Assembly (NCBI GenBank): GCA_017483575.1
Contig: JAFUWF010000017.1
Location: 62,001 to 126,000 of the forward strand
Direction of reading: 5' to 3'
Source of the DNA: Bacteroidales bacterium
GTDB taxonomy: Bacteria > Bacteroidota > Bacteroidia > Bacteroidales > P3
DNA length: 64,000 nucleotides
Positions 9,280 through 64,000 of this stretch are shown in pieces. The notes beneath the pieces were generated by a model. The model was given only the letters and a program-made list of their open reading frames with translations. It searched no databases and was not told the origin of the DNA. A program made the position numbers and the translations under genes. The first letter of the stretch is position 1. Each line of letters opens with the position of its first letter.

Positions 9280-9303
9280 TTTTCAATTTTCAATTTTCAA
9301 TTT
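9280..9303 (+). repeat. Heptamer array TTTTCAA x3, fucosidase signal peptide
   Basis: Three exact tandem copies of TTTTCAA (9280-9300) plus TTT. The array encodes the hydrophobic core of a signal peptide beginning at 9250 (MNKTLLAAAVFSIFNFQ). With three copies the frame runs into a stop; a fourth copy would join it to the fucosidase frame. Confidence 0.9.
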
Positions 9304-9347
9304 GCCATGCGCAGCACGACAGCATTCCGGAAACGGAGCCGGCCATT

Positions 9348-10541
9348 GTGGAGCGCATCGGGGAGTGGCAGGACCTGAAGTTCGGATTCATGATGCACTG
9401 GGGGCTCTATGCGCAGTGGGGCTGCGTGGAGAGCTGGAGCATCTGCAACGAGGACTGGATTGTGCGCGAGCGCATCGGCCGCGACGGCAAGCCCGTGAAG
9501 GGCACCAAGGACGGGGACTATTACGAATACAAGAAAGCGTACCAGAACCTCAACACCACCTTCAACCCGCAGCACTTCGCCCCGGAGCAGTGGGCGGCAG
9601 CGGCCAAGGGCGCCGGCATGAAGTACGTGGTCTTCACCACCAAGCACCACGACGGATTCTGCATGTTCGACTCCCGATACACCGACTACACCAGCATGCA
9701 CAGCCCGGCGCACCGCGACTTCACGCGCGGCATCGTCGACGCCTTCCGCACGGAGGGCTTCTGGACGGGCCTCTATTTCAGCAAGCCCGACTGGCACTGC
9801 GACGACTACTGGGCCCACGAGTGGGCCACGCCGGACCGCAACGTGAACTACAGCATCGCCGCCCACCCCGACCGCTGGCGGCGCTACCAGGAGTTCACCT
9901 ACAACCAGATACGCGAACTGACGCACAACTACGGCACCGTGGACATCCTCTGGCTCGACGGCGGATGGGTGCGCCCGGCATGGAGCGTCAACGACGAGAC
10001 GCGCCCCTGGCTGGGATGCAGCGGTCAGGTGCAGGAGCTGGACATGCAGCGCCTGGCCTCCATCGCCCGCGAGAAGAACCCACGGATGATCATCGTGGAC
10101 CGCTCGGTAGGCGGCCGCTATGAGAACTACCGCACGCCGGAGAAGCAGGTGCCCGACACGCTCCTCCCCTACCCCTGGGAGACCTGCATGACCATGGGCG
10201 ACAGCTGGAGCTACTCGCCCACAGACCAGTACAAGAGCACTCGCGAGCTGATACACATGCTGTGCGACGTGGTGGCCAAGGGCGGCAACCTGCTGCTCAA
10301 CGTGGGCCCCGACGCCGACGGCAACCTGCCCGCCGAGGCCCTGCAGCGCATGGAAGAGATAGGCAAATGGCTGAAAAAGAACGGCCACGCCATCTACGGC
10401 ACGCGCCCCCTCTACCCCTACTGCGACGGCAACCGCCGCTACACGCAGAGCAAGGACGGCCGCCACCAGTACGAGATAACGCTCACGGACGAAGCCCCCT
10501 ACGCCACCGTCCGCGAACTGAAAGGAAAACAACGGAAATAA
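9348..10541 (+). CDS. GH29 alpha-L-fucosidase, signal peptide out of frame
   Basis: 397 residues from GTG 9348; in-frame codons continue upstream to about 9306 and read HAQHDSIPETEPAIVERIGE, the usual start of the mature enzyme. GH29 features: FGFMMHWGLYAQWG, VVFTTKHHDGFCMFDS, HNYGTVDILWLDGGW with Asp204 as probable nucleophile, and GNLLLNVGPDADG. It hydrolyses terminal alpha-L-fucose from glycans. The signal peptide starting at ATG 9250 is in another frame, broken within the TTTTCAA array: inserting one 7-base unit gives MNKTLLAAAVFSIFNFQFSI then CHAQHDSIPE in frame. As sequenced the gene yields either no exported protein or a cytoplasmic one from GTG. Explanations: phase variation, a real mutation, or a collapsed repeat in assembly. 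Confidence 0.88.
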   Translation: MERIGEWQDLKFGFMMHWGLYAQWGCVESWSICNEDWIVRERIGRDGKPVKGTKDGDYYEYKKAYQNLNTTFNPQHFAPEQWAAAAKGAGMKYVVFTTKHHDGFCMFDSRYTDYTSMHSPAHRDFTRGIVDAFRTEGFWTGLYFSKPDWHCDDYWAHEWATPDRNVNYSIAAHPDRWRRYQEFTYNQIRELTHNYGTVDILWLDGGWVRPAWSVNDETRPWLGCSGQVQELDMQRLASIAREKNPRMIIVDRSVGGRYENYRTPEKQVPDTLLPYPWETCMTMGDSWSYSPTDQYKSTRELIHMLCDVVAKGGNLLLNVGPDADGNLPAEALQRMEEIGKWLKKNGHAIYGTRPLYPYCDGNRRYTQSKDGRHQYEITLTDEAPYATVRELKGKQRK

Positions 10542-10545
10542 TCAA

Positions 10546-10607: not shown

Positions 10608-10619
10608 AAAACAAAGACT

Positions 10620-11156
10620 ATGTCGAAGGAAGAGAAATACAAGGCCCTGCTGCCGCAGGCGAAAGCCCTCTGCGAGGGCGAGACCGACATGATAGCCCAG
10701 ATGGCCAACCTCGCCGCCCTGCTGCACCACGAGTTCGGCTTCTGGTGGACAGGGTTCTATAGAGTTAAGAGGTCTGAGGTAGGAGGTCTGAGGCCTGATG
10801 TCCCGGATGCGGAAGCCACCTCCGACCTCCAACCTCCGACCTCCGACCTGATTCTGGGGCCTTTCCAGGGGCCGCTGGCGTGCATGCACATCGGCTACGG
10901 CAAGGGCGTCTGCGGAACGGCATGGAAGGAACGCCGCACTGTGGTGGTACCCGACGTGGAGGAGTTCCCCGGCCACATAGCATGCAGCAGCGAGAGCCGC
11001 AGCGAGATAGTGGTTCCGATCTTTGAGAAGGCGGAGGTAGGAGGTCAGAGGTCGGAGGTGATAGCGGTGTTGGACATCGACAGCCGCGAGCTCGCCACCT
11101 TCGACGACACCGACCGCCGCTATCTGGAACAGCTGGTTTCCTACATCAACCTGTGA
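10620..11156 (+). CDS. Free methionine-(R)-sulfoxide reductase (GAF domain) with heptamer insertions
   Basis: 178 residues from ATG 10620; the longer frame from 10581 reads through the palindromic element and is less likely. The GAF fold shows the fRMsr signature: FGFWWTGFYRV, LILGPFQGPLACMHIGYGKG, VCGTAWKE, HIACSSESRSEIVVPIF, AVLDIDSRELATFDDTDRRY. The three redox cysteines of the family (ACMH, VCGTA, IACSS) are present. It reduces free methionine-R-sulfoxide with thioredoxin as donor in the cytoplasm. Odd: two insertions encoded by heptamer repeats, about residues 51-76 (RSEVGGLRP ... LQPPTSD) and 139-145 (AEVGGQRSEV), at loops where relatives have short hairpins. All catalytic parts stay in frame. 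Confidence 0.9.
   Translation: MSKEEKYKALLPQAKALCEGETDMIAQMANLAALLHHEFGFWWTGFYRVKRSEVGGLRPDVPDAEATSDLQPPTSDLILGPFQGPLACMHIGYGKGVCGTAWKERRTVVVPDVEEFPGHIACSSESRSEIVVPIFEKAEVGGQRSEVIAVLDIDSRELATFDDTDRRYLEQLVSYINL
10769..10846 (+). repeat. Inverted pair of GC-type heptamer arrays inside the fRMsr gene
   Basis: Four units of GAGGTCT-type (10769-10796), a 22-nt centre, then four units of CCTCCGA-type (10819-10846). The second array is the reverse-complement class of the first. Total 78 bases = 26 codons, so the frame is kept. Confidence 0.9.
11034..11054 (+). repeat. GC-type heptamer array x3 inside the fRMsr gene
   Basis: GAGGTAG, GAGGTCA, GAGGTCG in tandem: 21 bases, exactly seven codons, reading EVGGQRS in the protein. 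Same class as 10769-10796. Confidence 0.85.
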
Positions 11157-11166
11157 AAAAACATGC

Positions 11167-11198: not shown

Positions 11199-11213
11199 TT
11201 TAAAATCCGCTCC

Positions 11214-11303: not shown

Positions 11304-11352
11304 TTGCTGGTTTTCAGCGAGTTAAAGACATGTGTATTTTTATTGTTTTACG

Positions 11353-12021
11353 CTAAAAACGACAACCTACGCCGAAAGTGATTTTGAAGGGGTAGACGTA
11401 GGTGCCGGGGGTGGTGAGGTTGAGGATGTCGGTGATGCCGAAGCGGCTCTCCACCTGTACCAGCCACCGCTGGGCGAATTCGTAGCCGAGGGTGAGGCCG
11501 AGGCCGGCATGGATGTCGCTCATGGCGAAGCGCGATTTGCCGGTGGAGGGGTCGGTGTAGATCTGCCGCCGATAGAGATTAATGCCCTCGGTGGCAGCAG
11601 AATAGAGCACAAAATGGAAGTAAGGGCCGAAACCTGCGAGCAGATGTCCGCCGCGCCAGGGGTGGCGATAGAAGACGGAGAGGCCGAGGTCGGAGCCGAA
11701 GGTGAGCATGTGGCTGTGGTGGTCGCTATAGCGCAGGGTGGATTGCTCGAGCGAGGCGGTGCCGTTGGCCTGGAGGTACCACTGGTTGGTGATGTGGTAG
11801 TCGAGGAAGAGCCCGAGGCTCAAGCCGGTGGCAGGCAGCGAGTTGAGGATGGTGTCGGAGATGAGGGTGTCGCGGAGCAGGGGGTCTACGCGCATGATGT
11901 AGGACGAGAGGTTGGGGCCTACGGTGAATCCCCAGCTGACGTACTGCCGTTGCTGCTGGGCATGCAGCAAATTGAAAATTGAAAATTGAAAAATGAAAAT
12001 TATCAGGGCTATTTTTTTCAT
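11353..12021 (-). CDS. Outer-membrane beta-barrel protein (PorT-like family)
   Basis: 222 residues. The signal peptide MKKIALIIFIFQFSIFNLLHAQ has its hydrophobic core encoded by a heptamer array. The mature part is a run of amphipathic strands (GFTVGPNLSSYIMRVD, GLFLDYHITNQWYLQANG, GLTLGYEFAQRWLVQVESRF) ending in an aromatic residue (FGVGCRF), typical of an eight-stranded outer-membrane barrel of the PorT/OmpA-like class. Function cannot be read from sequence. It is transcribed in the same direction as the DUF5686-type gene upstream (stop 12079), 57 bases away. Confidence 0.75.
   Translation of the reverse strand: MKKIALIIFIFQFSIFNLLHAQQQRQYVSWGFTVGPNLSSYIMRVDPLLRDTLISDTILNSLPATGLSLGLFLDYHITNQWYLQANGTASLEQSTLRYSDHHSHMLTFGSDLGLSVFYRHPWRGGHLLAGFGPYFHFVLYSAATEGINLYRRQIYTDPSTGKSRFAMSDIHAGLGLTLGYEFAQRWLVQVESRFGITDILNLTTPGTYVYPFKITFGVGCRF
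11971..11998 (-). repeat. AT-type heptamer array, barrel-protein signal peptide
   Basis: ATTGAAA x3 plus AATGAAA on the plus strand: the same unit as the fucosidase array, reversed. Here the copy number keeps the frame open and encodes the FIFQFSIFN core. Confidence 0.88.
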
Positions 12022-12078: not shown

Positions 12079-14727
12079 CTACAACTGGAACTTCAGGTCG
12101 AGGCGTACGAACCAGCGGTCCCAGCCCTCGAGGCCGTCGAGGTAGCTGAGGCGGCGCACAAAGTCGATGCGGAGGAACTTCAGGATGTTTTCCACACCGA
12201 TGCTGTATTCCATGTAAGGCGTTGTGCCAAAGGCCTGTGTGCCCTCAGGCATCTGGTAGAGGCCCGTGCGGTCGCCGTAGAGGTCGTTCTTGGTGCTGAG
12301 GCCGCCGTAGAGGAAGTTGAATCCCACCACCTCGCGCAGGCGCAGGCGGTTGATGAGGGGTATGCGGTTGAGAATCCAGCCCTTGAGGTGGTAGGTGGCG
12401 AAGAGGGCCACATACTGGTCCATGATGAACTCCATGGGTTTCATAGTGTTGAAGGCGTTGGTGGCCAGGAAGAGGTTGGCGTTGCCGGAGGGGATGTAGA
12501 GGCGCGTGTAGGGGGCGCGGTTCCAGATGACGCCGGAGATGACCTTGGCGTCGATGTGGCCGAAGGAGGAGAGCCAGAAGCGCTTGTCGGCCGAGAAAGA
12601 GGTGCTCTGGATGAGCGTCTCGCCATCGACGAGGTTCACGTTGTGCGACAGCGAGATGGTGGGGGCGTCGCGGCGGAGGTTGCTCTGGGTCTCGCGGCGG
12701 CGCGTGCCGGCGGCGAAGTTGGGCGTGAAGCTCAGGCCCACATGGAACTCGCCTTCGGTGAAGAAGTCCACGCGTTTCAGCGTGCCGTCGGCCTGATACT
12801 GCATGTATTCCAGCGAGCCGGCAGGCTCGTAGCGGCGTGCCGCCACCCAGGTGTCGAAGCGCAGATGGCTCTTCCATTCCTTGCGGAAACGCAGCAGGGC
12901 CTGTGCCACATACTGCACGTTCAGTTCCTTGTCCGAGGAGGAGAAGATGTTGTCGCGGTCGAAGTTGTCGTAGCTCTGGCCGGGGGTCTCCAGTTCGTAG
13001 GTGGCGTTGAGGCTCAGGCTGCTGTAGGGGGCCTCGTGGACGTGGCGGTCCTTGTCGTCGAAGGTGTAGGTGTAGGTGAGGTTGGTCTTGGGGCGTTGGT
13101 CGCGGAAGCCGTAGGCCACATAGCCTTCGAGGAAGTGGCGAGGGCTGAGGGTGGCCTTGCTCATGCCGCCGAGGCGCACGCGCCAGCCTTCCTGGTGGTT
13201 GTAGCTGAGGAAGTTGAACACCGGACCGAGGTCGAAGCGGCTCTCGCTGCGCTGGCGGTGGGTGGGGATGAAGCCGCTGGCGAGCACCTCGCCGGTGGCT
13301 TTGAGGATGCGGAACTCCGGCAGGCGGCGCAGCTCGACCCACATGCTGTCCAGCACCGTCTCCTTGGCGGTGAGCTTCACGGGGCGGCGTTCGTTGAACT
13401 CGCTCTTGTAGCGCAGCAGTTGTTTCCGCGGCAGCACCACCTCCTTCTCGAAAGCCGAGAAGAGGCTGTCGGCCAGCATGTCGGCGGTGTCGCTGAGGTC
13501 GTATTCGGTGTAGACGCGCATCTGGTGCACATAGAGTTCCTGTATGCGCTTGGAGATGTACATGCGGCCGTAGGTGTCGCATCGGTAGGGAATCCACTTT
13601 ACAGGTCGGAGGTCGGAAGTCGGAGGTCGGAGGGTTGAATCCTCCTCATACCTCATACCTCCTACTTCCAACCTCTTGAAAGTCTGCACGATGGAGAGGT
13701 CGCGTACGAAATTGAGGTTCACGTGGGGCGACACGGTCATGACGTATTTCGTCAGGGCGAAGGTGCTGTCAGGGTCCAGCGAGACGTACATGCGGCCGGT
13801 GAAGCCATAGCTCTGCTGGTTGGCAGGCACAAAGCTCAGTTCCACGCACTTCTGCCCGTCGACGAAGGTGGTGTCGGTGATGTAGTACTTGTAGAACGTT
13901 ACGGCCAGCACGGGCGAGAGCGGCGAGGTGAAGTGGTTCAGCATCAGCTCGATGTCGCCGTCGTAGATGTCCACGGGGGTGAACATGGCCTGGATGTTGG
14001 CGTCCATGCCCTCGTCCTCCATCACCTCGTCGAGGCCTTCCATGCGTTTGCCCTTCACCAGGCGGCGCTTCAGCGAGGGGCTCTTGCGGTAGCTCTCCTC
14101 GGCCAGGGCCTCGCGCATGGAGACGATGAGGATGGGCGTGGCGTCGAACTCGGTCTCGTCGATGTATTTCTCCAGGAAGTTCAGCTTGCGCCAGATGCGC
14201 TTGCCCTCGAAGTCGGGGTTGAAGTTGTCCAGCGACATGGAGAGGCGCTCGTAGACCTGGCGGTGGTACTGGTCCGTGTTCTCCAGACGGTTCTCTTCCT
14301 TGTGGGCAATGACCTTCTTCACCAGATCCACGGCGGGGTTGTTCTTGCGGCTGTACTTGTTGCCGCCCTTCTTGGCCGTGATTTCCACAGCCTGCAGGGT
14401 CTTGCCGCGGGGCACCATCTTCACGGTCACGCGCTTCTTCGTCTTGCCCTTCTCGGCCTTGAAGCTCTGCGCCTCGTAGCCCATCATGCGGAACTGCAGC
14501 TTGGTCAGCCCCTGCGTGTTGCTGATGCTGAACTTGCCGTCCATGTCGGTCTCGGTGCCGATGGTCGTCCCCTCGAACACAATCTGCACGAACGGAATCG
14601 GCTCGTTGGTCTCCGCATCGCGCACACGCCCCTGCACGGCAGTGGTCGTCGTCTGGGCCGCCGACACAATGGGTACCAGCAGCAAGAACATCAAAACAAT
14701 CTGTCTATATCTCAACAAAATACGCAT
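12079..14727 (-). CDS. Carboxypeptidase-regulatory-like / DUF5686 outer-membrane protein
   Basis: 882 residues from ATG 14727; a longer frame to 15564 would overlap the next gene and is rejected. Signal peptide MRILLRYRQIVLMFLLLVPI..SAAQ, then a carboxypeptidase-D regulatory-like beta-sandwich (residues ~27-115: VQGRVRDAETNEPIPFVQIV, GTETDMDGKFSIS), then the long DUF5686 region ending in beta-strands (WDRWFVRLDLKFQL), consistent with a C-terminal outer-membrane barrel. Family role unknown; the regulatory domain is shared with TonB-dependent transporters. Odd: residues ~350-375 (RLEVGGMRYEEDSTLRPPTS) are encoded by an inverted pair of heptamer arrays and closely resemble the insertion in the unrelated fRMsr gene. 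Confidence 0.85.
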   Translation of the reverse strand: MRILLRYRQIVLMFLLLVPIVSAAQTTTTAVQGRVRDAETNEPIPFVQIVFEGTTIGTETDMDGKFSISNTQGLTKLQFRMMGYEAQSFKAEKGKTKKRVTVKMVPRGKTLQAVEITAKKGGNKYSRKNNPAVDLVKKVIAHKEENRLENTDQYHRQVYERLSMSLDNFNPDFEGKRIWRKLNFLEKYIDETEFDATPILIVSMREALAEESYRKSPSLKRRLVKGKRMEGLDEVMEDEGMDANIQAMFTPVDIYDGDIELMLNHFTSPLSPVLAVTFYKYYITDTTFVDGQKCVELSFVPANQQSYGFTGRMYVSLDPDSTFALTKYVMTVSPHVNLNFVRDLSIVQTFKRLEVGGMRYEEDSTLRPPTSDLRPVKWIPYRCDTYGRMYISKRIQELYVHQMRVYTEYDLSDTADMLADSLFSAFEKEVVLPRKQLLRYKSEFNERRPVKLTAKETVLDSMWVELRRLPEFRILKATGEVLASGFIPTHRQRSESRFDLGPVFNFLSYNHQEGWRVRLGGMSKATLSPRHFLEGYVAYGFRDQRPKTNLTYTYTFDDKDRHVHEAPYSSLSLNATYELETPGQSYDNFDRDNIFSSSDKELNVQYVAQALLRFRKEWKSHLRFDTWVAARRYEPAGSLEYMQYQADGTLKRVDFFTEGEFHVGLSFTPNFAAGTRRRETQSNLRRDAPTISLSHNVNLVDGETLIQSTSFSADKRFWLSSFGHIDAKVISGVIWNRAPYTRLYIPSGNANLFLATNAFNTMKPMEFIMDQYVALFATYHLKGWILNRIPLINRLRLREVVGFNFLYGGLSTKNDLYGDRTGLYQMPEGTQAFGTTPYMEYSIGVENILKFLRIDFVRRLSYLDGLEGWDRWFVRLDLKFQL
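13603..13678 (-). repeat. Inverted pair of GC-type heptamer arrays inside the DUF5686 gene
   Basis: Plus strand: AGGTCGG x2, AAGTCGG, AGGTCGG (13603-13630); a 13-nt centre; then CCTCATA x2, CCTCCTA, CTTCCAA, CCTCTTG (13644-13678). Same class and same inverted design as 10769-10846. Confidence 0.9.
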
Positions 14728-14786: not shown

Positions 14787-17700
14787 TTATTTGAAGGCGT
14801 TCTCGCTGAGGCCGTGGCCGGAGAGGGCGAGGTCCTTCATGTAGGAGGGGACGTCGTGGCCGAGGTACTTGTCGACGTAGAGCTTGGCGAGGTACTGGCC
14901 GAGCATGAAGCCGTGGCCGCGGAGGCCGGTGAGGAGGCCCACCTCGGGGTCGACGATGTAGCGCGGCTCGGTGTAGCGGCCGGCCCAGACGGCGAGGAAG
15001 CTCACCTCCTTCAGGCCGGGAATCCACTCGGCGAAGACTTCGGAGACAATCTCCAGGAACTCCTTGCTGTTGTACTTGATGTTCTGGCGCGTCTCGTAGG
15101 CGTCGGTGTCGGGGCTGGCGCAGCCGATGATCTGGCCCGTATGGGCGAACTGCTGGCCGTAGACGGCGCTGAAGCCTTTGTAGTGGCGACGGTCGATAAT
15201 CATGTCCAGCGCGTCGCCGCCAATGCCCATCAGCGGCAGACGGCGGGTGATGAAGGCCTGGTGCTTGACGGGATAGAGGCCGGTGTCGATGCCGAGCATG
15301 TCGGTGAAGCGCTCGGCGCCCCAGCCCATGCTGTTGACGAAGTGCTCGCAGTCGTATTCCACATATTTGCCTTCGTGCGTGCGCACCAGGGCCAGCGTGC
15401 GGCTGCCGTTGCGCTGCACATGGAGCAGCTCGCAGTCCTCGTAGACGCGGCCGCCGAGGTTCTTGCCGATGCCACGGATGTAGCCTATCACGCGGCCGGG
15501 GGTAGCCTGCCAGCAGTCGCGCGTCATGAGGGCGTGGCTGTAGGTGTCGCGCGTGTCGTCCCACAGGGGCGAAATCTCCTTCTTGAAGTCCTTGCGGTCC
15601 ACCATGTAGGCGTCGCTCCAGGCGCGGCTGGCGTCGAGGGCGCGGTAGGTGGCGTCGTCGTGGACGAGGTTGACGTAGCGCGTGGGCTTGTAGTTGATGT
15701 TGTAGACGGACTGTATCTGCTTGAATATCTCGTGGCTGTGCTGCGCGATGTCGGCGATGTCGGGATTGCTGAATGCCGGACGGCCGCCGCCGATGTTGCG
15801 CCAGGAGGCGCCGCGGCTCCAGTTGACCAGCACGGGCTTGAAGCCCGCCTCGCTGAAGTAGCGGAAGAGGCCGCTGCCCGCGATGCCGCCGCCGGCGATG
15901 AGCACGCGCACCTGCTCGCGCGTCACCTCGTTGCTCTTCGGGAAGACGAAGACTTCCTTGCGGCCCTCGGTGTAGAGGTCACCCAGCGAGACCTGGTTGC
16001 TCAGCGGCGCACGGGGAGTGGCGTCGCCGGTGAGTTCGATGCCGTGGGCACGCAGCAACTGCCGCGCACGGGCGATGCAGCGCTTGCCGCGGCAGGGACC
16101 CATACCCATGCGGGTGATGTGCTTCAGCTCGTCGACGGAGATGTATTTTCGGTCCTTGCCCACGGCTTCGAGTATCTGCTCGTCGGTGATGTCCTCGCAG
16201 TGGCAGACGTAGGTCAGGGAATTGAGAACTGAGAATTGAGAATTGAAAATTATTGGTTCGGGATATTTATCCTTGACGATAAAGCCCTTGACGTCCGTCA
16301 AATTCTCAATTCTCAATTCTCCATTTCCAATTACCTTCACGCGGGCCACATTGGTCTTGTTGTCTTTCTTCATCACCTTCTCCACGGTGCCCTCGCCTAT
16401 CTTCTGGCCGTTATTGTCCACCAGGTAGACCTCCGCGCCCTCCTCCACCTCGTATTCCACGGGCAGGAAACACCATTCCTTCTGCACATTGTAGCCGAAG
16501 ATGGCCAGGCCGGGGCAGTGGTTGACGCACTCCATGCAGCCGATGCACTTGTCGTAGTCCACCGTGGGCGTACTGCTGGTGGTGGGTTTGCTGATGGCCC
16601 CCTGGGGGCAGCTGAAGGTGCAGGGGTTGCAGGCGAAGCCGTAGAGGCAGTCGATCTGCACAAAGGGCCGCACGGCCATGCGCTCCGCCGTGGGCAGGTC
16701 AGGACGCTCCTTGAGCCTCACGGGGTGCTGCTGCGAGTCGATATACTGGCGCGAGACCTCCAGATAGTCGTCGTAGTTGAACCGGATGGCCATCTCCTGC
16801 GCAATCTCGTAGGCCACCTGCTTGCCGCGAAGCACGGCACTCGTACCCTCGCCGATGCGCACAGCGTCGCCCGCGCCGTAGACATGGTGCCCGAAGAGTT
16901 CCTTACCCTTGGTGAGCAGCTGATTGTCGGGCACAAGGCCGGTGCAGATGTTGATGATGTCGATGTCCTCTATTGTCTGTTCCGTGCCGGGGATGGGCTT
17001 GAAGTTCTCGCAGCGGGCGATGACGGCACCCTTGATGCCGGTGCGATCGTCGTTGGGGATGGCGCGCAGCAGGGTGTAGCCCGTCATGATGGGGATGCCC
17101 AGACGGCGCACACGGTTGGCCTGCACGGGGAAACCGCCCTCGCGCGGCATGGCCTCGATGATGGCCTTGATGGTTGCCCCCGCCTGCATACCTTGGTAGG
17201 AGGTCAGGTAGCCGATGTTGCCGGCACCGACGGTCAGCACCCGCTTGCCGAGCAGCGTATGCTCCTGGTTCATCATCTTTTGGAACACGGCGGCGGTGTA
17301 TACGCCCGGCACATCGTCGTTCTCGAACGGTGGCATATACGGCACCGCTCCGGCAGCCACCACCAGGTGCTGCGCGTCGATGTAGGCCATCTGTCCGTTG
17401 ACCACGTTCTTCACCGCAATCCGCGGCCCCTCCAGGATGTCCCACACCGTGGTGTTCAGCAGGATCCCATCCTTATTGCTTCCGGCCAAGGTCTTCGCTA
17501 TGTCGAAACCGCGCATGCCGCCGTATTTCTTCTCCTTCTCGAAGAAGAAGAACTGGTGCGTCTGCATGTTGAACTGTCCGCCGATGCGCGGATTGCTGTC
17601 GACAACCAGATTGTCGATGCCGAAGGCATTCAGCTGCTCGCGGCATGCCAGACCCGCGGGGCCGGCGCCGACGATGGCCACCTGCGTCTTGTACACCTGC

Positions 17701-21025: not shown

Positions 21026-22258
21026 TCAGTCGGCACAGCTGCCGCCGGGGCTCCAATGGGCGGGGAGGCGGTAGCGCGTGGTGTTGTGGCCGAAGTTGTA
21101 GATGTAGCCTACGGTGATGGACGGCAGGCCCACCCAGAGGATGTCGTAGCTGAGGATGCCGGGCAGGGGGCCCGCCTCACCGGTGCCGCCGGCGACGCGC
21201 GGAGTGACCATGGTGTACTTGAAGTCGGCATAGAGGTCGCTGCGACGGCCGATGTAGTAGCGCAGCATGACGCCGAAGTCGGCGGCCATGTCGAACTGGG
21301 CGTTGTCGTAGCGCCAAGCCAGACCGGCGCCAAGATAGGGCAACACGTTGAGTTTCTTGCCGCGGGTGAACTTCAGGGCATGGGTGAGGTTGACCATGAC
21401 GTCGGTGTGGAAAGTGGAGAAGGTGTAGCCATCGCCTGGCTCGTCGTTGATGGTGTCGTAGCGTTCGTGGGCCGTGAGGCCGGCAAGTTCGAAGCGGATG
21501 GTCCAGAAGTTGCTGTAGTTGCGTCCGAACATGATTTCGGGGGCAGCGCCGTACATGCCGAGTTTGTCCACGTGTTCGAAGGTGAAGGAGGAGAAGTTGG
21601 GGCCGATGCCGGCGCCGAAGAACCAGTCTTCCATCACACCGCGGGACTCTCCGGACGTGCGACGGCGGAAGGGGCCTTCGGTGAACTGGTGCGAGAAGCC
21701 CAGGAGCAAGGAGTGGAGGTAGACGTCGCCGCCGCTGCCGTCGAAGGCCTCGGGGAAGAAGTTGCACTTATATTCGAGGAAAGCGTCCCAGCGGGGGTTG
21801 ATGACATAGTTGACCTGAGCGCCCAGCATGGCCTGGAACTCGTGGTCGGTAGAGTGGCCGTTGTCGCCACCTTCGAACACCACACCGAGGCCTATCATGG
21901 GGTAGGCCTTCAGGCGCCAGTTGCGGATGCGGAAGAAAGTGGAGGTGAAGTCCCAGAGGAACTCGGCACTTCCGAGGGCGAAGTTGGCGGTGTAGGGTTT
22001 GACGGTCGAGGCGTTGGGGATGGTCATGAAGTCGAAGCTCACGCGGAAGGCCAGGGGGCTGACAATCCACTTGCCCACGGAGATGCCGCCGGAGAAGCCC
22101 GTGGGGCACTCGTTGAGGCGGTTGCTGTACACGCCCATGCCTCCCTTGAGGGAGAGGAACATGTTGTCGCCGAAGCGCTCGCCGGGCTGGGCCCAGGAAG
22201 TTGAGTATTGAAAATTGAAAATTGAAAAAAACGCAGCTAGAAGGAGAAATTTTTTCAT
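21026..22258 (-). CDS. Outer-membrane beta-barrel protein, paralogue 2 of tandem pair
   Basis: 410 residues, signal peptide MKKFLLLAAFFSIFNFQYST..WAQ with a heptamer-encoded core. The body is alternating aromatic beta-strands and turns. It aligns along its whole length with the 22271-23563 gene: YKCNFFPEAFDGSGGD versus the neighbour's YKCFFLPQSFDGSFGE, HQFTEGPFRRRTSGESR versus HRMTDDPYHRRTAHESR, GYIYNFGHNTTRYRLP versus GYIHNFGHSTTRYRMP. The two arose by tandem duplication. Role unknown; a large barrel or scaffold in the outer membrane is inferred. Confidence 0.78.
   Translation of the reverse strand: MKKFLLLAAFFSIFNFQYSTSWAQPGERFGDNMFLSLKGGMGVYSNRLNECPTGFSGGISVGKWIVSPLAFRVSFDFMTIPNASTVKPYTANFALGSAEFLWDFTSTFFRIRNWRLKAYPMIGLGVVFEGGDNGHSTDHEFQAMLGAQVNYVINPRWDAFLEYKCNFFPEAFDGSGGDVYLHSLLLGFSHQFTEGPFRRRTSGESRGVMEDWFFGAGIGPNFSSFTFEHVDKLGMYGAAPEIMFGRNYSNFWTIRFELAGLTAHERYDTINDEPGDGYTFSTFHTDVMVNLTHALKFTRGKKLNVLPYLGAGLAWRYDNAQFDMAADFGVMLRYYIGRRSDLYADFKYTMVTPRVAGGTGEAGPLPGILSYDILWVGLPSITVGYIYNFGHNTTRYRLPAHWSPGGSCAD
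22207..22227 (-). repeat. AT-type heptamer array x3, barrel signal peptide
   Basis: ATTGAAA three times on the plus strand, encoding the FSIFNFQ core of the 21026-22258 signal peptide. Confidence 0.88.
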
Positions 22259-22270
22259 AATTTCTAATTT

Positions 22271-23563: not shown

Positions 23564-23566
23564 AAT

Positions 23567-23594
23567 CTCATTTCTCATTTCTCATTTTTCATTT
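23567..23594. repeat. CTCATTT x3 + TTCATTT heptamer array, intergenic
   Basis: Four tandem seven-base units in the gap between the trigger factor stop (23611) and the barrel gene start (23563). Confidence 0.85.
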
Positions 23595-23610
23595 CTCAGT
23601 TTTTACTCAG

Positions 23611-30848: not shown

Positions 30849-30850
30849 TA

Positions 30851-30878
30851 TTTTTGATTTTTAATTTTTAATTTCTCA
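30851..30878. repeat. T-rich heptamer array between kamE and CoA-transferase
   Basis: TTTTTGA, TTTTTAA x2, TTTCTCA on the plus strand (30851-30878). It spans the intergenic gap and includes the kamE stop codon at 30876-30878. Confidence 0.7.
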
Positions 30879-45973: not shown

Positions 45974-46006
45974 TCAGTGGGCAGTAGTCAGTAATCAGTA
46001 GTCAGT
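45972..46006 (+). repeat. AGTCAGT-type heptamer array, ispF leader
   Basis: AGTCAGT, GGGCAGT, AGTCAGT, AATCAGT, AGTCAGT: five seven-base units spanning the whole porV-ispF gap and ending four bases before the ispF ATG. No Shine-Dalgarno sequence remains. Confidence 0.88.
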
Positions 46007-46010
46007 AATT

Positions 46011-46784: not shown

Positions 46785-46819
46785 TATAACCAATAACCAA
46801 TAACCAATAACCCAAAACC
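46785..46819 (+). repeat. ATAACCA-type heptamer array before the NfeD gene
   Basis: TATAACC, AATAACC x3, CAAAACC on the plus strand, in the gap between clpS and the NfeD gene. Confidence 0.85.
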
Positions 46820-46837
46820 CCTTAACCCATCACACCC

Positions 46838-52907: not shown

Positions 52908-54175
52908 TCAGTCGATGATTTCGTCGGGGTTGATGTTCTTGCGCTTCTCCTCGCGGGGCTGGGAGTCCTCCTCCTGCTCGGGGACGATGCGGAAGAGGTC
53001 GCGGAGGGCCTTGCGGAGCTCGTAGCCGCCGCGCTTGTCGACGCGATAGGCCACAAAGAAGCGGCGCCCCACGGCGAAGGAGGCCGCCTCGGTGGGCGAG
53101 TCGACCTCGAAGAAGTAGTCCTTCAGTTCCTTCTCGGAGATGCGCTTGCCGAGGTAGATGGTGTCGAACTGGGCCACGTTGATGGGGGCCTGGAGCATGA
53201 GCTCGCCCTTGCCGGGCATCTTGCGGGTGGGCAGGGCTTTGTATTCGATGCCGCGCGAGGTTTTCACCTTGGCGAAGAACTTCAGCTTGGAGGCCACCTG
53301 TTCGGGGGTGGCGGGGATGCGTATGTAGATGGAGTCCTTCTGGGGCTCCTCGCACTCGTCAAGGCGGCGGCCGTAGTTGCTGCTGACGACGACGTAGCCG
53401 GCCTGGACAAGGATTTGTTTCGGATGGGGAATGAGGCTGTAGCGTTCCACGGTGGTGCGGTAGTCGAGGTGGTCGTCCACCTTGATCTGGATGTCGCTAG
53501 GGCAGGTGTCCTTGGTGCCGCTGACGGAGTAGACGGAGCCTTTGGCAAGGAAGAGGCTGGCGTAGTAGCCGCGCACGAGGCTGTCGGCAGCCGGGACGAA
53601 GCATCCGCGGGCCGCGCCGATGCACTCGTCGGGGTCATTGCGGAAGGTGACGAGGATGGAATTGGTGAGGTCGACGCTCTTGTTGAGTTTCAGACGTTCG
53701 CCGGGGAGGGTGGCGCAGTCGTAGACGGCCGTTGCCGTAGGCACCTCGAAGCGGAGCGTCTCGACGGAGTCGCCGTGGCAGGAGCAATGGATGGGGTTTT
53801 GCGCATAGCGTATGGGGAAGGGGGCGCGGCAACGCATGGAGAAGTAGCGCAGGACGGACTCGACACGCTTGTTGCCCAGCACCTCGTCGGCGCCGGCATA
53901 GCTTTCCACCACCATGGTGTAGAGCATGGGGTTCTGCTCGGAGAAGGCGATGCGATAGGCGGAATCCAGGAGGTCGAGGTGGTTGACGCTGTAGGTGGAG
54001 TCGTTGCCCTGACAGGTGAGCAGGAGGTAGAAGACCTGGGGGTTGGTGAGGGCCTTCCGCATGTCCTTGACGGGCTTGTCTGCAGGCACATAGAGGCCGG
54101 ACTGCGCCCTCAGGGCGAACGGCGTGAGGTGAAAGGCGAAAACTGAAATTATGGCCGCGGCCATCAATATCTTTT

Positions 54176-57386: not shown

Positions 57387-59454
57387 TCTTGTGGATTTTC
57401 ACTCTGTATTTGCTGCGGAGGTCCTTGTTGAGGTTCTCCTCCACTTCGTTCTGCCAGGCGTTGAGGTAGTAGCCGCGAGCTTCGAACTGCCCCTTGAGGC
57501 AGGGCGCTATGACGTCCTGCACCACGAGCAGACGATAGCCCTTGCCGGAGTGCACGGCGTAGACACCGAGCTTCCACTGGTCGTCGCCGAGCAGGTCCTG
57601 ACGGGTCTGTTCCACCACCTCGACGCTGTTCTTGATGGGCTCAGCCACTTCGCACTTCTTCTTGTCGACCTTCTTCATGAGTGCATCCTGCATGTCGGAC
57701 ATGGAGAGGTTCTTACTGAGGGACTTGCGGAGAATCTTCACAGCCTTGTCGGAATCGAGGCAACGGCTGTCCTCGACGTCAAAGACAACCACACGCGCAC
57801 GTGTACGCCAAAAATATATGGAATCGCCGGGCACGGAGAGGCTCTTCTTGGCGCTCTCGCGGCCGTAGAAGTCGGCAAATCCGGCGCTGTCCTTGATGGC
57901 CTTGGTCCAGATCATCTTCTCGTTATAGTTGAAAATCAACAGGCCGCGGCGATACTCATTCACGAGCTCGGCAAAATCGGGATGTTCCTTCTCCAGCTGG
58001 CTGTCGGCATAGGCGATGGTGATGCTGTCGAGGAAGTCCTCATAGCGCTGTCGGGCATAGAAGGAGAGCTCCGTGCGAGGGGTGCGTTTCTGCGAGCGAC
58101 GGACAAAGTCGACCACATCGAGCAGACGGTATTCCTTGCCGGGGACACGTGCCAACACGGGGTTCACGGTGAAGACCGAATCGGGCTCCGACCACTTGCC
58201 GGTGAAGACCTTGTCGTTGAGATGGGCCGTCAGACTGTCGAGGCTGGCCTGCATCACAACGGGTTGTTTCTTCGCTTTCTTCTTGCCTTTCTGAGGCACG
58301 GGGGTGGTGGTCAGGTCGACCACACCGTATTTCTTCATGGCTGCGGAGGCAAATGCCTTGCGGGAGGCGCTGCCACGCGGGTCGCGCACCATGCGCTGAC
58401 GGTAGTAGGGCTCCAGTTTCTCGAACTCGGGGCGTTCCTCACGCTTGACCAGCTTCACCAGGTGCCATCCGTACTGCGTATAGAAGGGGTGCGACACCTC
58501 GCCCTCCTGCAGCTTGCTGATGATGGTGATGTACTCGGAAGGCAACTGGCGCATCTCCACATTCTCCAGCAGACCGCCGCTATTGGCCGTGGAATAGTCG
58601 TCGCTCTGGCGTGCCACAATCTCGAAGGGAGTGCCGGACTGCAGACGGTCGTAGATGGAGGTCATTTCGGCACGCGAATTGTGATTGCGGTTCCAGTAGT
58701 GCTGGATGGTGACCTTGCCGTAGTGCTTCACCTTCTCTATGACCTTGATGATATGGTATCCGAAACGGGTACGCACAGGCATGCTCAGTTCGCCCGGTTC
58801 CAGGCTGTAGGCCGCATTCTCGAAGGGATACACCATATCGAAAGCGGTGAAGTAGCCGAGGTCGCCCTCGTTGGGCTGCACCTTGGCTTGGGGGTCCACG
58901 CGACGGGCCTCCTCGATGGCCACATCGTGGAAGTTCTCGCCGTCCAACACACGCTTGCGCAGCTCGAGGGCGCGGTTGTACGCCGCCAGGGTGTCCTCAG
59001 GGTCGGCATCCGGGCCCACCTTCACCAGGATGTGCATGGCATGCACGGCATACTGGTTGCGGTCGTAGGCCTCGCGGAGAATGCGCGTCAGCATGGCGGA
59101 GTCGATGAGGTAGGGAGCCGCAAGCTCGGCGCGGTACTTGCCCAACTCGTCGCGCAAAGCGGCGGTGGTGTCAAGCCCCTGAACGTGGGCATCGCGCAGT
59201 TTGGCCTGGAAGTTGGCGTAGAGTTCCACGTATTCGTCCAGGGCGGCGCGCTTCTCGGCCTCGCTGGCCCCTTTGGCCACAAGGTTGTCGCCGACGGACT
59301 GCATGAAGTCCTTCATAAACTCCTGCTGGCGGATCTGCCGACCTCCAACCTCAACCACAACGGGATTGTCCTGGGCCTGGACGGTCGCATACTGAAAACC
59401 GAAAACCGAAAAGACGGCCGCAGCCAACAATATCTTCTTTTTCATCTGTTGCAA
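57361..59454 (-). CDS. Large PpiC/parvulin-domain periplasmic protein
   Basis: 697 residues, signal MKKKILLAAAVFSVFGFQYA..VQAQ with a heptamer-encoded core. Parvulin signatures occur twice: YAVHAMHILVKVGPDADPED with FGYHIIKVIEKVKH, and a diverged one near HYWNRNHNSRAEM with YGWHLVKLVKREE. A long C-terminal region is helical. It is the first of three adjacent SurA-like genes downstream of guaB. Confidence 0.88.
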   Translation of the reverse strand: MQQMKKKILLAAAVFSVFGFQYATVQAQDNPVVVEVGGRQIRQQEFMKDFMQSVGDNLVAKGASEAEKRAALDEYVELYANFQAKLRDAHVQGLDTTAALRDELGKYRAELAAPYLIDSAMLTRILREAYDRNQYAVHAMHILVKVGPDADPEDTLAAYNRALELRKRVLDGENFHDVAIEEARRVDPQAKVQPNEGDLGYFTAFDMVYPFENAAYSLEPGELSMPVRTRFGYHIIKVIEKVKHYGKVTIQHYWNRNHNSRAEMTSIYDRLQSGTPFEIVARQSDDYSTANSGGLLENVEMRQLPSEYITIISKLQEGEVSHPFYTQYGWHLVKLVKREERPEFEKLEPYYRQRMVRDPRGSASRKAFASAAMKKYGVVDLTTTPVPQKGKKKAKKQPVVMQASLDSLTAHLNDKVFTGKWSEPDSVFTVNPVLARVPGKEYRLLDVVDFVRRSQKRTPRTELSFYARQRYEDFLDSITIAYADSQLEKEHPDFAELVNEYRRGLLIFNYNEKMIWTKAIKDSAGFADFYGRESAKKSLSVPGDSIYFWRTRARVVVFDVEDSRCLDSDKAVKILRKSLSKNLSMSDMQDALMKKVDKKKCEVAEPIKNSVEVVEQTRQDLLGDDQWKLGVYAVHSGKGYRLLVVQDVIAPCLKGQFEARGYYLNAWQNEVEENLNKDLRSKYRVKIHKNVVGAIKF
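59391..59411 (-). repeat. ACTGAAA/ACCGAAA heptamer array in PpiC signal peptide
   Basis: ACTGAAA, ACCGAAA, ACCGAAA on the plus strand, encoding FSVFGFQ, the same position and period as in the barrel genes. Confidence 0.85.
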
Positions 59455-62422: not shown

Positions 62423-62443
62423 GTTCTTTTTCAAACGACAACA

Positions 62444-63655
62444 ATGACAACACAAACAACATTGCTATCTCAGGTCCGCAAACCGCATGTGGCGGTTTGC
62501 CGGTTGTCTCTGTTGTCATTGTTGTCGTTATTTTTCATGACCCTGTCGTCGCCGGCATGGTCCCAGGACACCAACACCGTCTTCCTCCACATCGACGGCA
62601 CCCACTTCTTCATCGACAACGAGTACTTCGGCGACCGCGTCAGCGGCTACACCCTGCCGGGCTTCGTGCTGAGGCCCAAGGTGGAATGGCGGCTGCACGA
62701 GAGCGTGACGTTGACGGGCGGCGTGCATTGGCTGCACATGTGGGGCGCCAAGGGGTTCCCCTCGGTGATGACCTACGGCGCCTATCCCGACTACAGCGAC
62801 ACCGCCAGCAGCCTGCACCTCCTGCCCTGGATGCAGGCCACGGTGAAGTTCTCGCCGCAGCTGAAGCTGGTGATGGGCAATCTGGAGGCCGGCCACGGCC
62901 TGCCCGAGCCGCTCTACAACTTCGAGCAGGGCCTGGCGGGCGACCCCGAGGCGGGCATCCAGCTGACGAGCTGGGGACGATGGCACGAAGTGGACATTTG
63001 GGCCGACTGGCGCGAATACATCTGGAACCTCAGCCCTCGCCCCGAGCGTTTTACGGGCGGTTTGAGCGGCGAGCTGCGTATGTACTGGATAGATTGGAAA
63101 ATCTACCTGCCGGTGCATTTCGTAGGGCAGCATGAGGGTGGCCAGCGTCTTGCGTTCAGCCACCGCATCAAGAACAACTTCAACGCCGCCGCAGGCCTGG
63201 GCGTGAGCAAGCCATGGGGCGAGGCCAGCTACTGGGACCTCAGCTGCCGCCTGATGTGGTACCATCAGCGGGGCAACGACTCCATCCCCTTCACCACCGG
63301 CTGGGGCATCTACCCGGAGCTGAAAATGACGCTGAACTACCATTGGCTGCTGAGCCTCAGCTATTGGCATGGCGAGAACTTCGTCCCCCTGATGGGCAGC
63401 TGGCATTTCAGCAACCTCTCAGCCAACACGGCGGGCCTCACCTTCGACCGCACGCGGGTGGCCACGCTGCATGCCGGATGGTACTGGGACCCCGGCTGGC
63501 GCGCCAAGGCAAGCCTCTACCTCTTCGGCACACTCTATCACTACCTGCCCTCCACTGGCACCTTCAGCAACGGCACCTCCCGCGAATACGGCCACCGCAA
63601 CCAGATAGCCTTCGGCGCGGTGCTCTCTTTCCATCCCACCATACGACTGTACTGA
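62444..63655 (+). CDS. Outer-membrane beta-barrel protein of unknown function
   Basis: 403 residues, N-terminus MTTQTTLLSQVRKPHVAVCR then a hydrophobic core LSLLSLLSLFFMTLSSPAWS (nine-base GTTGTCNNT repeats). The mature part is rich in Trp/Tyr strands (GGLSGELRMYWIDWKIYLPV, SLSYWHGENFVPLMGSWHFS) ending in FHPTIRLY, typical of a barrel. Function unknown. Its stop overlaps the ribF ATG (TGATG), so the two are co-translated. Confidence 0.75.
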   Translation: MTTQTTLLSQVRKPHVAVCRLSLLSLLSLFFMTLSSPAWSQDTNTVFLHIDGTHFFIDNEYFGDRVSGYTLPGFVLRPKVEWRLHESVTLTGGVHWLHMWGAKGFPSVMTYGAYPDYSDTASSLHLLPWMQATVKFSPQLKLVMGNLEAGHGLPEPLYNFEQGLAGDPEAGIQLTSWGRWHEVDIWADWREYIWNLSPRPERFTGGLSGELRMYWIDWKIYLPVHFVGQHEGGQRLAFSHRIKNNFNAAAGLGVSKPWGEASYWDLSCRLMWYHQRGNDSIPFTTGWGIYPELKMTLNYHWLLSLSYWHGENFVPLMGSWHFSNLSANTAGLTFDRTRVATLHAGWYWDPGWRAKASLYLFGTLYHYLPSTGTFSNGTSREYGHRNQIAFGAVLSFHPTIRLY

Positions 63656-64000
63656 TGTTCAAGCTCTACGACATACACGGCCCCCTCTCCGCCATCCCCG
63701 AACCCACCGCCGTCACCGTCGGCGTCTTCGATGGCGTGCACCGTGGCCACCAAGACCTCATCAAACAACTCTCCGCTCTCCGCTCTCCACTCTCCACTTT
63801 AGTCGTCACCTTGACCGCCCACCCCTCCTTCGTCCTCGGTCGCCGCGACAGCGAGTACTGGCTCGACGACCGCGAGGAGCACCTGCGGCTGCTCTTCGAG
63901 GCGGGCGCCAAATATGTCGCCGTGCTGCCCTTCACGCGCGAGGTGGCACAGCTCAGCGCCTGCGCGATGGCCCGTCTGCTCTACGACAAACTGAACATGC
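63655..64000 (+). CDS. ribF: Bifunctional riboflavin kinase/FAD synthetase, 5' part
   Basis: 115 codons are in the window; the gene runs off the edge. VTVGVFDGVHRGHQDLIKQL is the nucleotidyltransferase (FAD synthetase) signature, and VVTLTAHPSFVLG and REEHLRLLFEAGAKYVAVLP are further RibF N-terminal features. It makes FMN and FAD. Odd: residues 38-47 (LSALRSPLST) are encoded by a heptamer array and sit where relatives have a charged helix end (between the GHQ.LI helix and the VVTF strand). Confidence 0.93.
   Translation, partial: MFKLYDIHGPLSAIPEPTAVTVGVFDGVHRGHQDLIKQLSALRSPLSTLVVTLTAHPSFVLGRRDSEYWLDDREEHLRLLFEAGAKYVAVLPFTREVAQLSACAMARLLYDKLNM
63768..63795 (+). repeat. CTCTCC-type heptamer array inside ribF
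   Basis: ACTCTCC, GCTCTCC, GCTCTCC, ACTCTCC in tandem within the coding sequence; the ribF frame stays open on both sides. Confidence 0.88.

What the first reader, a model, noticed from the sequence alone, without database searches (positions are those of the whole stretch)
9280..63795. A family of heptanucleotide tandem arrays spread through genes and gaps
At least 14 places have 3-5 tandem seven-base units. Unit sequences fall into classes: TTTTCAA/ATTGAAA (9280, 11971, 16221, 16302, 22207), GAGGTCG/CCTCCGA (10769, 10819, 11034, 13603, 13644), CTCATTT (23567), GAAAAAG (23477), TTTTTAA (30851), AGTCAGT (45972), ATAACCA (46785), GGTGAAA (54121), ACCGAAA (59391), CTCTCCG (63768). The shared period despite different sequences points to one process (slippage, or spread of a seven-base element) rather than chance. 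Heptamer arrays called STRR are known in cyanobacteria; I do not know of a described Bacteroidales counterpart. A stop-free heptamer array also encodes the same seven-residue cycle in all three frames, so indels change the frame but not the peptide composition.
Basis: partly seen in the sequence, partly recalled or inferred. Interest (0 to 1): 0.85.

Follow-up and report, generated by a model that had tools for sequence, protein, structure and literature searches.

The report
Heptamer-armed palindromes inserted in genes
Many of the seven-base repeats are arms of short, dispersed DNA palindromes found between genes, in signal peptides and, in frame, inside ordinary genes of a Bacteroidales genus, where one subfamily would add the same short peptide to unrelated proteins.

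Summary
The arrays are real and far above chance: in 858 kb of this genome period 7 gives 126 arrays, periods 4-6 two, period 8 seven, simulation none at 7. They are not plain microsatellites. About a third (44 of 126, control 0) have an inverted partner within 120 bp. Of 75 period-7 spacers, 47 hold a core GCTN{1,3}CGC such as GCTGACGC (random mean 4.9, maximum 11). In one ~82-bp subfamily five copies are 85-95% identical, though arms of one class inflate that. Of 9 exact arm-plus-core hits in the own genome, 8 lie in the same strand and frame inside long ORFs, coding IENSKLKIENSADASNNSQFSILNSQF-like peptide; hosts include MnmA, a CobW-type GTPase, ThiF and a GH94 protein. The peptide matches 33 of 120 genus genomes. 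At 27 orthologous sites (~87% identity) 6 keep the class, 8 carry another repeat, 13 none. Closest analogue: Rickettsia palindromic elements. How they move is unknown: a reverse transcriptase, Y1 transposases and SbcD loss were tested and do not explain the distribution. Translation is untested.

The parts
10769..10849 (+). Paired heptamer element inside the GAF-domain gene 10581-11156: GAGGTCT-type arm, 24-nt spacer with a core match GCTTCCGC on the minus strand (10809-10816), inverted ACCTCCG arm. Adds RSEVGGLRPDVPDAEATSDLQPPTSDL in frame; here the gene reads against the core direction.
   Evidence: orthologues carry other inserts or none at the same codons
11032..11059 (+). Single GGAGGTC array at a second loop of the same GAF gene (adds EVGGQRSEV)
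13603..13675 (-). Paired element, no core match, in frame in the DUF5686 / carboxypeptidase-regulatory-like gene (about 12079-14760, minus): peptide FKRLEVGGMRYEEDSTLRPPTSDLRPVKW; no array at the orthologous place in G007 and G009
16219..16251 (-). GAATTGAG-type arm in the oxidoreductase-like gene 14787-18050
16301..16325 (-). Inverted AATTCTC arm of the same pair; the 49 nt between the arms resemble the gene's own sequence in G007 and G009, not an element core
9279..9303 (+). ATTTTCA array in a signal-peptide-like start MNKTLLAAAVFSIFNFQFAM (judged by eye), out of register with the alpha-L-fucosidase frame that follows (9348-10541) in this assembly
11969..12001 (-). Array in the signal-peptide-like start MKKIALIIFIFQFSIFNLLHAQ of an outer-membrane beta-barrel gene (11353-12021)
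22207..22276 (-). Array in the signal-peptide-like start MKKFLLLAAFFSIFNFQYSTSWAQ (gene 21026-22258), and a weak TTTCTAA row in the leader (22253-22276)
23477..23503 (-). GAAAAAG array in the signal-peptide-like start of gene 22271-23578 (...LKKLFCASLFLLFPFSFFNTAMAQ)
23507..23514 (+). Core GCTGGCGC next to the GAAAAAG arm
23566..23598 (-). Inverted partner array TCTCATT at the 5' end of gene 22271-23578
30850..30882 (.). ATTTTTA array at the junction of two minus-strand ORFs
45969..46007 (.). AGTAGTC array between two plus-strand genes; relative G007 has an AAGTTTA-type array there, G009 none
46786..46820 (.). ATAACCA array between two plus-strand genes; G007 has an AACACTG-type array there, G009 none
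54121..54148 (-). Degenerate heptamer stretch in the signal-peptide-like start MKKILMAAAIISVFAFHLTPFALRAQ (gene 52908-54179); weak
59394..59412 (-). Short GAAAACC array in the signal-peptide-like start MKKKILLAAAVFSVFGFQYATVQAQ of a PPIC-type isomerase gene
63768..63798 (.). ACTCTCC array near the window end

Best explanation
Many of the arrays are arms, or single-arm relics, of a family of short dispersed palindromic elements. A complete element is about 80-90 bp: roughly five heptamers, a few nucleotides, a core GCT(G)ACGC, a short loop, and roughly five heptamers in inverse order; as single strand it can fold into a hairpin. Shown: inverted pairing and a shared core far above chance; similar copies at unlinked sites; unit classes that differ between genomes; sites filled in one species and without any repeat in another; and, for the AAAATTG subfamily, copies in frame in unrelated conserved genes that would code the same ~27-residue peptide. 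Other arrays lie in signal-peptide-like starts. Inferred: (1) copies land at many places and are kept mainly between genes, in signal peptides and in tolerant protein positions in the frame free of stops, so the element behaves as selfish, protein-tolerated DNA as Rickettsia palindromic elements do; (2) arms stay heptameric and matched because slippage homogenises units and template switching across the hairpin copies one arm to the other, so new unit classes arise and then spread; (3) copying goes through a single-stranded or repair intermediate, served by an enzyme not identified here. That the peptides are made is inferred from the open frames only.
For: Period-7 excess. Inverted partner within 120 bp: 44/126 in G000 (control 0), 37/145 in G002 (control 1), 8/25 in G015 (0), 2/18 in G001 (0). 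Core GCTN{1,3}CGC in 47/75 period-7 spacers; random mean 4.9, maximum 11 of 200 draws; shuffled mean 2.6, maximum 7; 65 of 71 core occurrences in period 7-9 spacers start 0-7 nt from an arm. DNA folding z -4.0, -8.9, -4.4 for three chosen elements. Another copy spanning the spacer at >=78%: 15 of 31 paired elements in G000, 6/30 in G002, 3/6 in G015, 4/13 in G007, 0/1 in G001 and 0/1 in G009. Spacer similarity alone: 45 of 435 pairs in G000 (random segments mean 10.1, maximum 19), 19 of 231 in G002 (4.3, 9), 7 of 66 in G007 (1.4, 4). Genome-specific classes: 1083 same-class pairs within genomes, permuted mean 822, 0 of 2000 as high; G000 against G007 alone 10 of 2000. In-frame peptide: 8 of 9 whole-genome hits, same strand and frame; matches in 33 of 120 genus genomes; host families. 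In-gene sites without a repeat in relatives. GAF loop: GAGGTC-type, AATTGAA-type and GAATGAT-type inserts in different species, none in 12 of 20 copies.
Against: Two thirds of arrays have no detected inverted partner; 28 of 75 period-7 spacers lack the core; over all arrays only 73 of 747 array ends (both strands) have the core within 23 nt, against 35 with the reverse motif and 15 and 7 with scrambled motifs. The copy identities are inflated because arms of one class resemble each other anyway; spacer similarity is above chance in three genomes but partly the core itself, and in G015 no pair reaches the cut-off (0 of 15). Among 36 in-gene pairs, 12 read with the core direction, 6 against, 6 have it both ways and 12 have none, so one fixed orientation holds for the AAAATTG subfamily, not for all classes. 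Filled and unfilled sites differ by replacement of host sequence rather than by a clean insertion with target duplication, and several single arrays replace loop sequence with no length change. The pair at 16219/16301 encloses apparently native gene sequence. No mobilising enzyme was found. Occupied sites carry another repeat in relatives only moderately more often than unoccupied intergenic sites (8 of 21 against 10 of 45 for G007). In-frame copies are partly survivor bias, and the search favours open frames. Gene calls are from a home-made caller.
Confidence: 0.66

Rival explanations
1. Ordinary heptanucleotide microsatellites: polymerase slippage with a 7-nt preference (the idea that MacGregor 2015 attributes to Mrazek 2007) grows arrays from local seed sequence, with no mobile element.
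For: Heptamer excess is widespread in bacteria (PMC4692102 introduction; PMC4679880 introduction). Two thirds of arrays here are unpaired, and copies of one class would look alike in the arms without descent.
Against: Does not explain inverted pairs, the shared core, spacer similarity above chance in three of four genomes, genome-specific classes, or the same peptide in the same frame in unrelated genes.
Confidence: 0.18
2. Break-healing or telomere-like addition: both 3' ends of a break are extended with the same heptamer by a templated polymerase and then joined through a filler, giving inverted arms.
For: Units read toward the spacer on both strands; the core lies at the inner end of arms; host sequence is replaced at filled sites; genome-specific classes would follow from a shared template.
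Against: No RVT_1 protein in array-rich G000, G001, G002, G004, G006, G007 and G015 (G012, with 14 pattern hits, does have one). In most oriented AAAATTG copies the arm before the core is A-type and the arm after it G-type, which suggests copying of a preformed element.
Confidence: 0.08
3. Loss of the hairpin nuclease subunit SbcD lets palindromes accumulate, and this sets which species have them.
For: Looked promising in the first 25 genus genomes (one search read).
Against: Over 120 genus genomes, pattern present in 31/63 SbcD-negative and 25/57 SbcD-positive, Fisher p = 0.59; in those >=85% complete p = 0.06; in those >=90% complete 20/34 against 10/32, p = 0.03, uncorrected for kinship or repeated testing. 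G061, G006, G344 and G351 have SbcD and 31-58 pattern hits.
Confidence: 0.04

Closest known systems
Rickettsia palindromic elements (RPE)
   Same: Short dispersed palindromes, several families, inserted in frame in unrelated protein-coding genes with a conserved peptide (PMC10969869, passages read)
   Different: About 82 bp rather than ~150 bp; arms are heptamer arrays whose unit class changes between species; Bacteroidales; no sequence comparison with RPE was made
Heptanucleotide long simple sequence repeats (STRR of cyanobacteria; TAACTGA of Beggiatoaceae and Bacteroidetes; GGGNATC of Xanthomonas and Nostoc)
   Same: Tandem 7-nt units in few copies, scattered over the genome, Bacteroidetes included
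   Different: In what I read (PMC4679880, PMC4692102, parts) one or few unit sequences, mainly intergenic, discussed as regulatory sites or G4 formers; here many classes, inverted pairs with a core, in-frame coding copies
Geobacter metallireducens multicopy elements (four heptanucleotide repeats in 49 places; class 3 sites of five MTYCTGA heptamers)
   Same: Heptamer arrays within and between genes; the regulator-site classes are said to be mostly in pairs and are drawn across both strands in the legend (PMC2700814, passages read)
   Different: Interpreted there as regulator-binding or RNA elements; no in-frame peptide in the passages read
REP/BIME elements with RAYT (Y1) transposases
   Same: Dispersed hairpins with a conserved part
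   Different: Y1_Tnp genes do not follow array abundance; arms here are tandem heptamers and copies lie in coding DNA too

Membership tests
Rickettsia palindromic elements | Palindromic, hairpin-forming, several dispersed copies | tested here: met
   copy identity partly due to the arms
Rickettsia palindromic elements | In-frame position in unrelated genes with a conserved peptide | tested here: met
   for the AAAATTG subfamily; other classes give looser peptides in mixed orientation
Rickettsia palindromic elements | Length near 150 bp | tested here: not met
   about 82 bp for the AAAATTG subfamily
Rickettsia palindromic elements | Sequence homology with described RPE families | not tested
   no RPE sequence was fetched or compared
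Heptanucleotide microsatellite (LSSR/STRR) | Tandem 7-nt units above chance and above neighbouring periods | tested here: met
Heptanucleotide microsatellite (LSSR/STRR) | Stand-alone array without element structure | tested here: inconclusive
   not met for the paired part (44 of 126 in G000); the unpaired remainder could be plain microsatellites
REP / RAYT system | Presence of a Y1 transposase follows presence of the repeats | tested here: not met
   G006 and G008 have the repeat pattern but no Y1 hit (72% and 88% complete); G003, G005, G018 and G020 have Y1 but no pattern hit
MITE | Target-site duplication at insertion | tested here: inconclusive
   filled/unfilled comparisons in coding DNA show replacement of host bases; flank divergence hides short duplications
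MITE | Parent transposon with the same ends | not tested
   no search for an autonomous element was made beyond RVT_1 and Y1_Tnp
Phase-variable contingency locus | Unit-number variation between cells switching a frame | not testable with these tools
   needs reads or several strains; window 9279 is out of register with the enzyme frame in this assembly

The most novel reading that the evidence does not exclude
Bacteroidales carry a large system of selfish, coding palindromes: hairpin elements with heptamer arms that invade housekeeping genes in frame, are translated as tolerated loops and signal-peptide cores, and renew their arm sequence so fast that sister species rarely share a class at the same site. 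The unexplained excess of heptamer repeats in many bacterial genomes would then be, in part, the relics of such elements. A period prime to three would be favoured because it gives the same peptide composition in every frame, which makes array growth and truncation survivable inside genes.
Probability: 0.33. Interest if true: 0.88.

Novelty: new variant of a known kind. Interest (0 to 1): 0.75.

Why it matters
In-frame palindromes in protein genes are known to me mainly from Rickettsiales (recalled, and PMC10969869 passages). A second such system in a Bacteroidales genus, with copies inside the domain matches of conserved enzymes such as MnmA and a CobW-type GTPase, offers a natural experiment on how proteins gain loops and signal peptides from selfish DNA. 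It also gives the old observation that seven is a favoured repeat length a concrete hypothesis to test. For annotation, it accounts for recurrent odd peptides (FSIFNFQ, RSEVGG, NSQFSILNSQF, SPLSTLHSPLS) in predicted proteins of this genus.

Tried and rejected
Reverse-transcriptase source: RVT_1 matches in 16 of 41 genomes, none in array-rich G000, G001, G002, G004, G006, G007 or G015, one in G012, which has 14 pattern hits. Rejected as a shared, Pfam-detectable source; G000, G006 and G007 are only 72-79% complete.

Y1 (REP/RAYT) transposase: 31 of 41 genomes match, no clean correlation.

SbcD loss: suggestive in 25 genus genomes, not supported in 120.

Site memory (class replaced at a kept site): sites without the same class carry another repeat in 8/21 (G007), 7/31 (G015), 16/35 (G002), and 13/39 with G002 as query; unoccupied intergenic sites in 10/45, 6/47, 19/59 and 9/47. 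A moderate excess in each; independent insertion at permissive sites is enough.

Strict class-plus-core pattern in the order: 1 of 247 genomes, the own one (this draw held no other member of the genus). Core in Bacteroidota loci brought in by the ATTTTCA pattern: 5 of 17 spacers against random mean 0.7, maximum 3; other phyla 1 of 20 against 1.0. Inverted pairs do occur in those loci (72 of 254 arrays; no random control was run there).

Spacer check made at the end: above chance in G000, G002 and G007, not in G015.

Viral contigs: class plus core 0; ATTTTCA x3 30 stretches; not followed up.

Structure prediction of the GAF protein was tried three times; the machine was busy.

Literature: 10 searches; in their listings I saw no description of palindromic heptamer-armed coding elements in Bacteroidales. 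Only six papers were opened, in part; the library lacks most subscription journals. A term search in PMC4060949 found nothing on heptamers. Cyanobacterial small dispersed repeats nested in heptamers (Elhai 2008) are recalled only.
Full report
WHAT WAS CLAIMED AND WHETHER IT IS THERE. Seventeen have a period-7 row in Tandem Repeats Finder; 54121 is only a degenerate run. With exact lag-k runs of at least 12 matches the window has 9 at period 7 and none at periods 2-6 or 8-10. The window is G000:C26:62001-126000 of a 1.96-Mb, 78% complete, 30-contig assembly. In 858,100 bases of that genome (44%) I find 126 arrays of period 7 at score 13 or more, 7 of period 8, 23 of period 9, 51 of period 11, and none at 7 in one Markov-3 simulation.

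NOT ONE SEQUENCE, AND NOT EVERY SPECIES. The commonest classes in the own sample are AAAATTG 23, AATTCTC 16, ACTCTCC 11, ACCTCCG 8 and ACCTCAG 6 of 126. Other members of the genus favour others (ACTCATC 20 of 145 in G002; AAACCTT 8 of 57 in G007), and same-class pairs cluster within genomes (1083 against 822 permuted, 0 of 2000 as high; G000 against G007 alone is weaker, 10 of 2000). Density ranges from 0 in 220 kb of G016 to 362 per Mb in G002. ATTTTCA x3 is present in 56 of 120 genus genomes, 0 to 58 copies, and in none of 24 genomes drawn from other families of the order. So the habit is wide while abundance is lineage-specific.

OFTEN ARMS OF A PALINDROME. In the own sample 44 of 126 arrays have an inverted partner within 120 bp (random control 0); G002 37 of 145 (control 1), G015 8 of 25, G001 2 of 18, controls 0. 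I listed 82 merged pairs over the seven sampled genomes, none in G016. Of 75 period-7 spacers of 6-70 nt, 47 contain GCTN{1,3}CGC on either strand; 200 random draws give mean 4.9, maximum 11; shuffled spacers mean 2.6, maximum 7. In spacers of periods 7-9 the forms are GCTGACGC 21, GCTACGC 14, GCTGGCGC 9, GCTTGCGC 8 and rarer ones; 65 of 71 occurrences start 0-7 nt from an arm. Period-8 pairs share the core (5 of 10, random 0.7); period-9 pairs only doubtfully (4 of 11, random mean 1.0, maximum 4); period-10 and period-11 pairs do not (0 of 9, 0 of 15). Three chosen elements fold as DNA hairpins with z-scores of -4.0, -8.9 and -4.4. Two thirds of arrays have no detected partner, and over all arrays only 73 of 747 array ends on both strands have the core close by, against 35 for the reverse motif and 15 and 7 for scrambled motifs. 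So the element structure covers a part of the arrays; the rest are decayed, single-armed or plain microsatellites.

SIMILAR COPIES AT UNLINKED SITES. Fifteen of 31 paired elements in G000 match another place at 78% identity or more across the spacer; 6 of 30 in G002 (one of them a local duplication), 3 of 6 in G015, 4 of 13 in G007, 0 of 1 in G001 and 0 of 1 in G009. Arms of one class resemble each other anyway, so I compared spacers alone: pairs scoring 10 or more are 45 of 435 in G000 (random segments mean 10.1, maximum 19), 19 of 231 in G002 (4.3, 9), 7 of 66 in G007 (1.4, 4) and 0 of 15 in G015 (0.1, 1); part of that is the core itself. The best-defined subfamily is about 82 bp: (GAAAATT)n, CGGCTGACGCAAGCAAT or similar, (AATTCTC)n. 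Five copies (L052:17891, L054:9321, L054:9967, L220:17250, L219:13094) are 85-95% identical; L218:10509, with another spacer, and L222:976 are 78-84%. In most oriented copies the arm before the core is A-type and the arm after it G-type; L222:976 and some others do not follow this.

IT CODES, IN ONE FRAME. In a whole-genome DNA search free of frame bias, GAAAATTNGGCTGRCGC has 9 hits in G000. Eight lie in long open frames, all on the same strand and in the same frame relative to the element, giving KIENSKLKIENSAGASNNSQFSILNSQF and variants; two of the eight are in one gene. The ninth is read on the other strand in a signal-peptide-like start. If placement were random and only one of six frames survived in genes, I would expect roughly 0.4 of survivors in genes (my estimate from the coding fraction 0.81). 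The TGA that a perfect AAAATTG array must contain is avoided by a unit variant in 9 of the 10 copies aligned; L222, not inside a gene, keeps it. A search with the 28-residue peptide finds matches in 33 of 120 genus genomes, some of them with stops; of the 30 fetched loci 26 lie in an open frame of at least 100 codons in the peptide's direction. That search favours open frames. Of 16 host frames located I scanned 10: ThiF-type, Fn3-associated, glycosyltransferase, CobW-type GTPase, GH94, DUF2229 and MnmA from the own genome, and an M3 oligopeptidase, a metallo-hydrolase and a sugar transferase from relatives. In MnmA (residues 134-161 of a domain match 10-224), CobW (117-144 of 10-222) and the M3 peptidase (500-527 of 167-631) the insert is inside the domain match. 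Of the 82 pairs 36 lie in genes by my caller; with the core direction 12, against it 6, both 6, no core 12. Other classes give peptides of similar build, for example VENGKRKVENNATQDSVSPLSTFHFPLFTL, MRNEELASASNDSSFNIQHSSL and RSEVGGLRPDVPDAEATSDLQPPTSDL.

IN THE WINDOW. The GAF-domain gene 10581-11156 holds a paired element and a single array at two loops. Among 20 aligned copies the first loop holds a GAGGTC-type insert in G000, G036 (one arm) and G001 (a frame-disrupted copy), AATTGAA-type in G015, GAATGAT-type in G002, GC-rich inserts in G004 and G007, a non-repeat insert in G005, and nothing in the other 12; the second loop holds short repeats in G000, G002, G080, G065 and G019. The DUF5686 gene holds FKRLEVGGMRYEEDSTLRPPTSDLRPVKW in frame. 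Six arrays (9279, 11969, 22207, 23477, 54121, 59394) lie in signal-peptide-like starts, judged by eye. The pair 16219/16301 encloses sequence that resembles the gene's own in G007 and G009, so it is not a single hairpin insertion.

TURNOVER. Of 27 sites of G000 arrays with both flanks found in G007 (mean flank identity 87%), 6 keep the class, 8 carry another repeat of period 7-11 and 13 carry none; 88 further sites had no orthologue in the 238 kb of G007 fetched. In 52 comparisons of array-bearing coding sites with relatives in which no array was detected there, 45 length differences are multiples of three (sites recur between relatives). Most paired elements give +48 to +75, but +6, +18 and +39 also occur; several single arrays give zero. 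Usually 10-50 nt of host sequence are replaced rather than simply split, in one case 95; loop divergence between species may exaggerate this.

WHAT MAKES THEM MOVE. Not found. RVT_1 is absent from seven array-rich genomes though present in G012, Y1_Tnp does not follow abundance, and SbcD loss, attractive at first, fails over 120 genomes. I think copying of a preformed hairpin with slippage and arm-to-arm template switching most likely; that step is inference.

WHAT IS KNOWN. Heptamer excess in bacteria is known (Mrazek 2007 as described in PMC4679880 section 3 and PMC4692102 section 3). TAACTGA arrays in Bacteroidetes are known (PMC4679880 section 12). Geobacter metallireducens has heptamer arrays in and between genes, with site classes mostly in pairs (PMC2700814, passages). 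RPEs insert in frame with conserved peptides (PMC10969869, passages), and PARCELs are palindromic coding repeats (PMC2996958, abstract). None of the listings of ten searches showed a palindromic heptamer-armed coding element in Bacteroidales. I therefore call it a new variant of a known kind: it works like an RPE, but membership was not tested by sequence and the length differs.

Noticed in passing
window 49114-49205; L049:5149, L049:14942, L227:12854, L229:17511: A second dispersed family with period-11 units (TCATATAGTAT / TATATGAATAC) also in inverted pairs, without the GCTGACGC core. Period 11/22 is enriched in this genome; G016, which has no period-7 array in 220 kb, has 6 period-11 arrays of other sequence.
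   Followed up: partly
L048:4007, L052:10581, L052:12822, L218:17760: Period-10 inverted pairs built on GACAAGAAAG, AT-rich, several copies.
   Followed up: no
L046:2286, L046:11690, L046:13748: Three long similar copies with period-9 arms (AAATCTTGT) and cores GCTGACGC, GCTTCGC or GCTTGCGC; perhaps an intermediate between the heptamer elements and other palindromes.
   Followed up: no
L294 (G007), around 9835-11407: Palindromic repeats of the form GTAGAGACGCAGCRYGCTGCGTCTC in intergenic DNA, GTAG-tagged like REPs of RAYT transposases (the likeness is recalled).
   Followed up: no
window 9250-9360: The signal-peptide-like start before the alpha-L-fucosidase is out of register with the enzyme frame across the ATTTTCA array in this assembly; a switched-off state, a decayed gene or an assembly miscount.
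   Followed up: partly
G002 samples (L232-L251): G002 also has an excess of period-8 arrays (37 in 400 kb), with some inverted pairs sharing the same core, so the unit length is not strictly 7.
   Followed up: partly
L018 (GAF orthologue in G004): The same GAF loop holds a different GC-rich palindrome (CCTCACCCCCAGCCCCTCTCC... type), so the loop accepts unrelated palindromic inserts.
   Followed up: no
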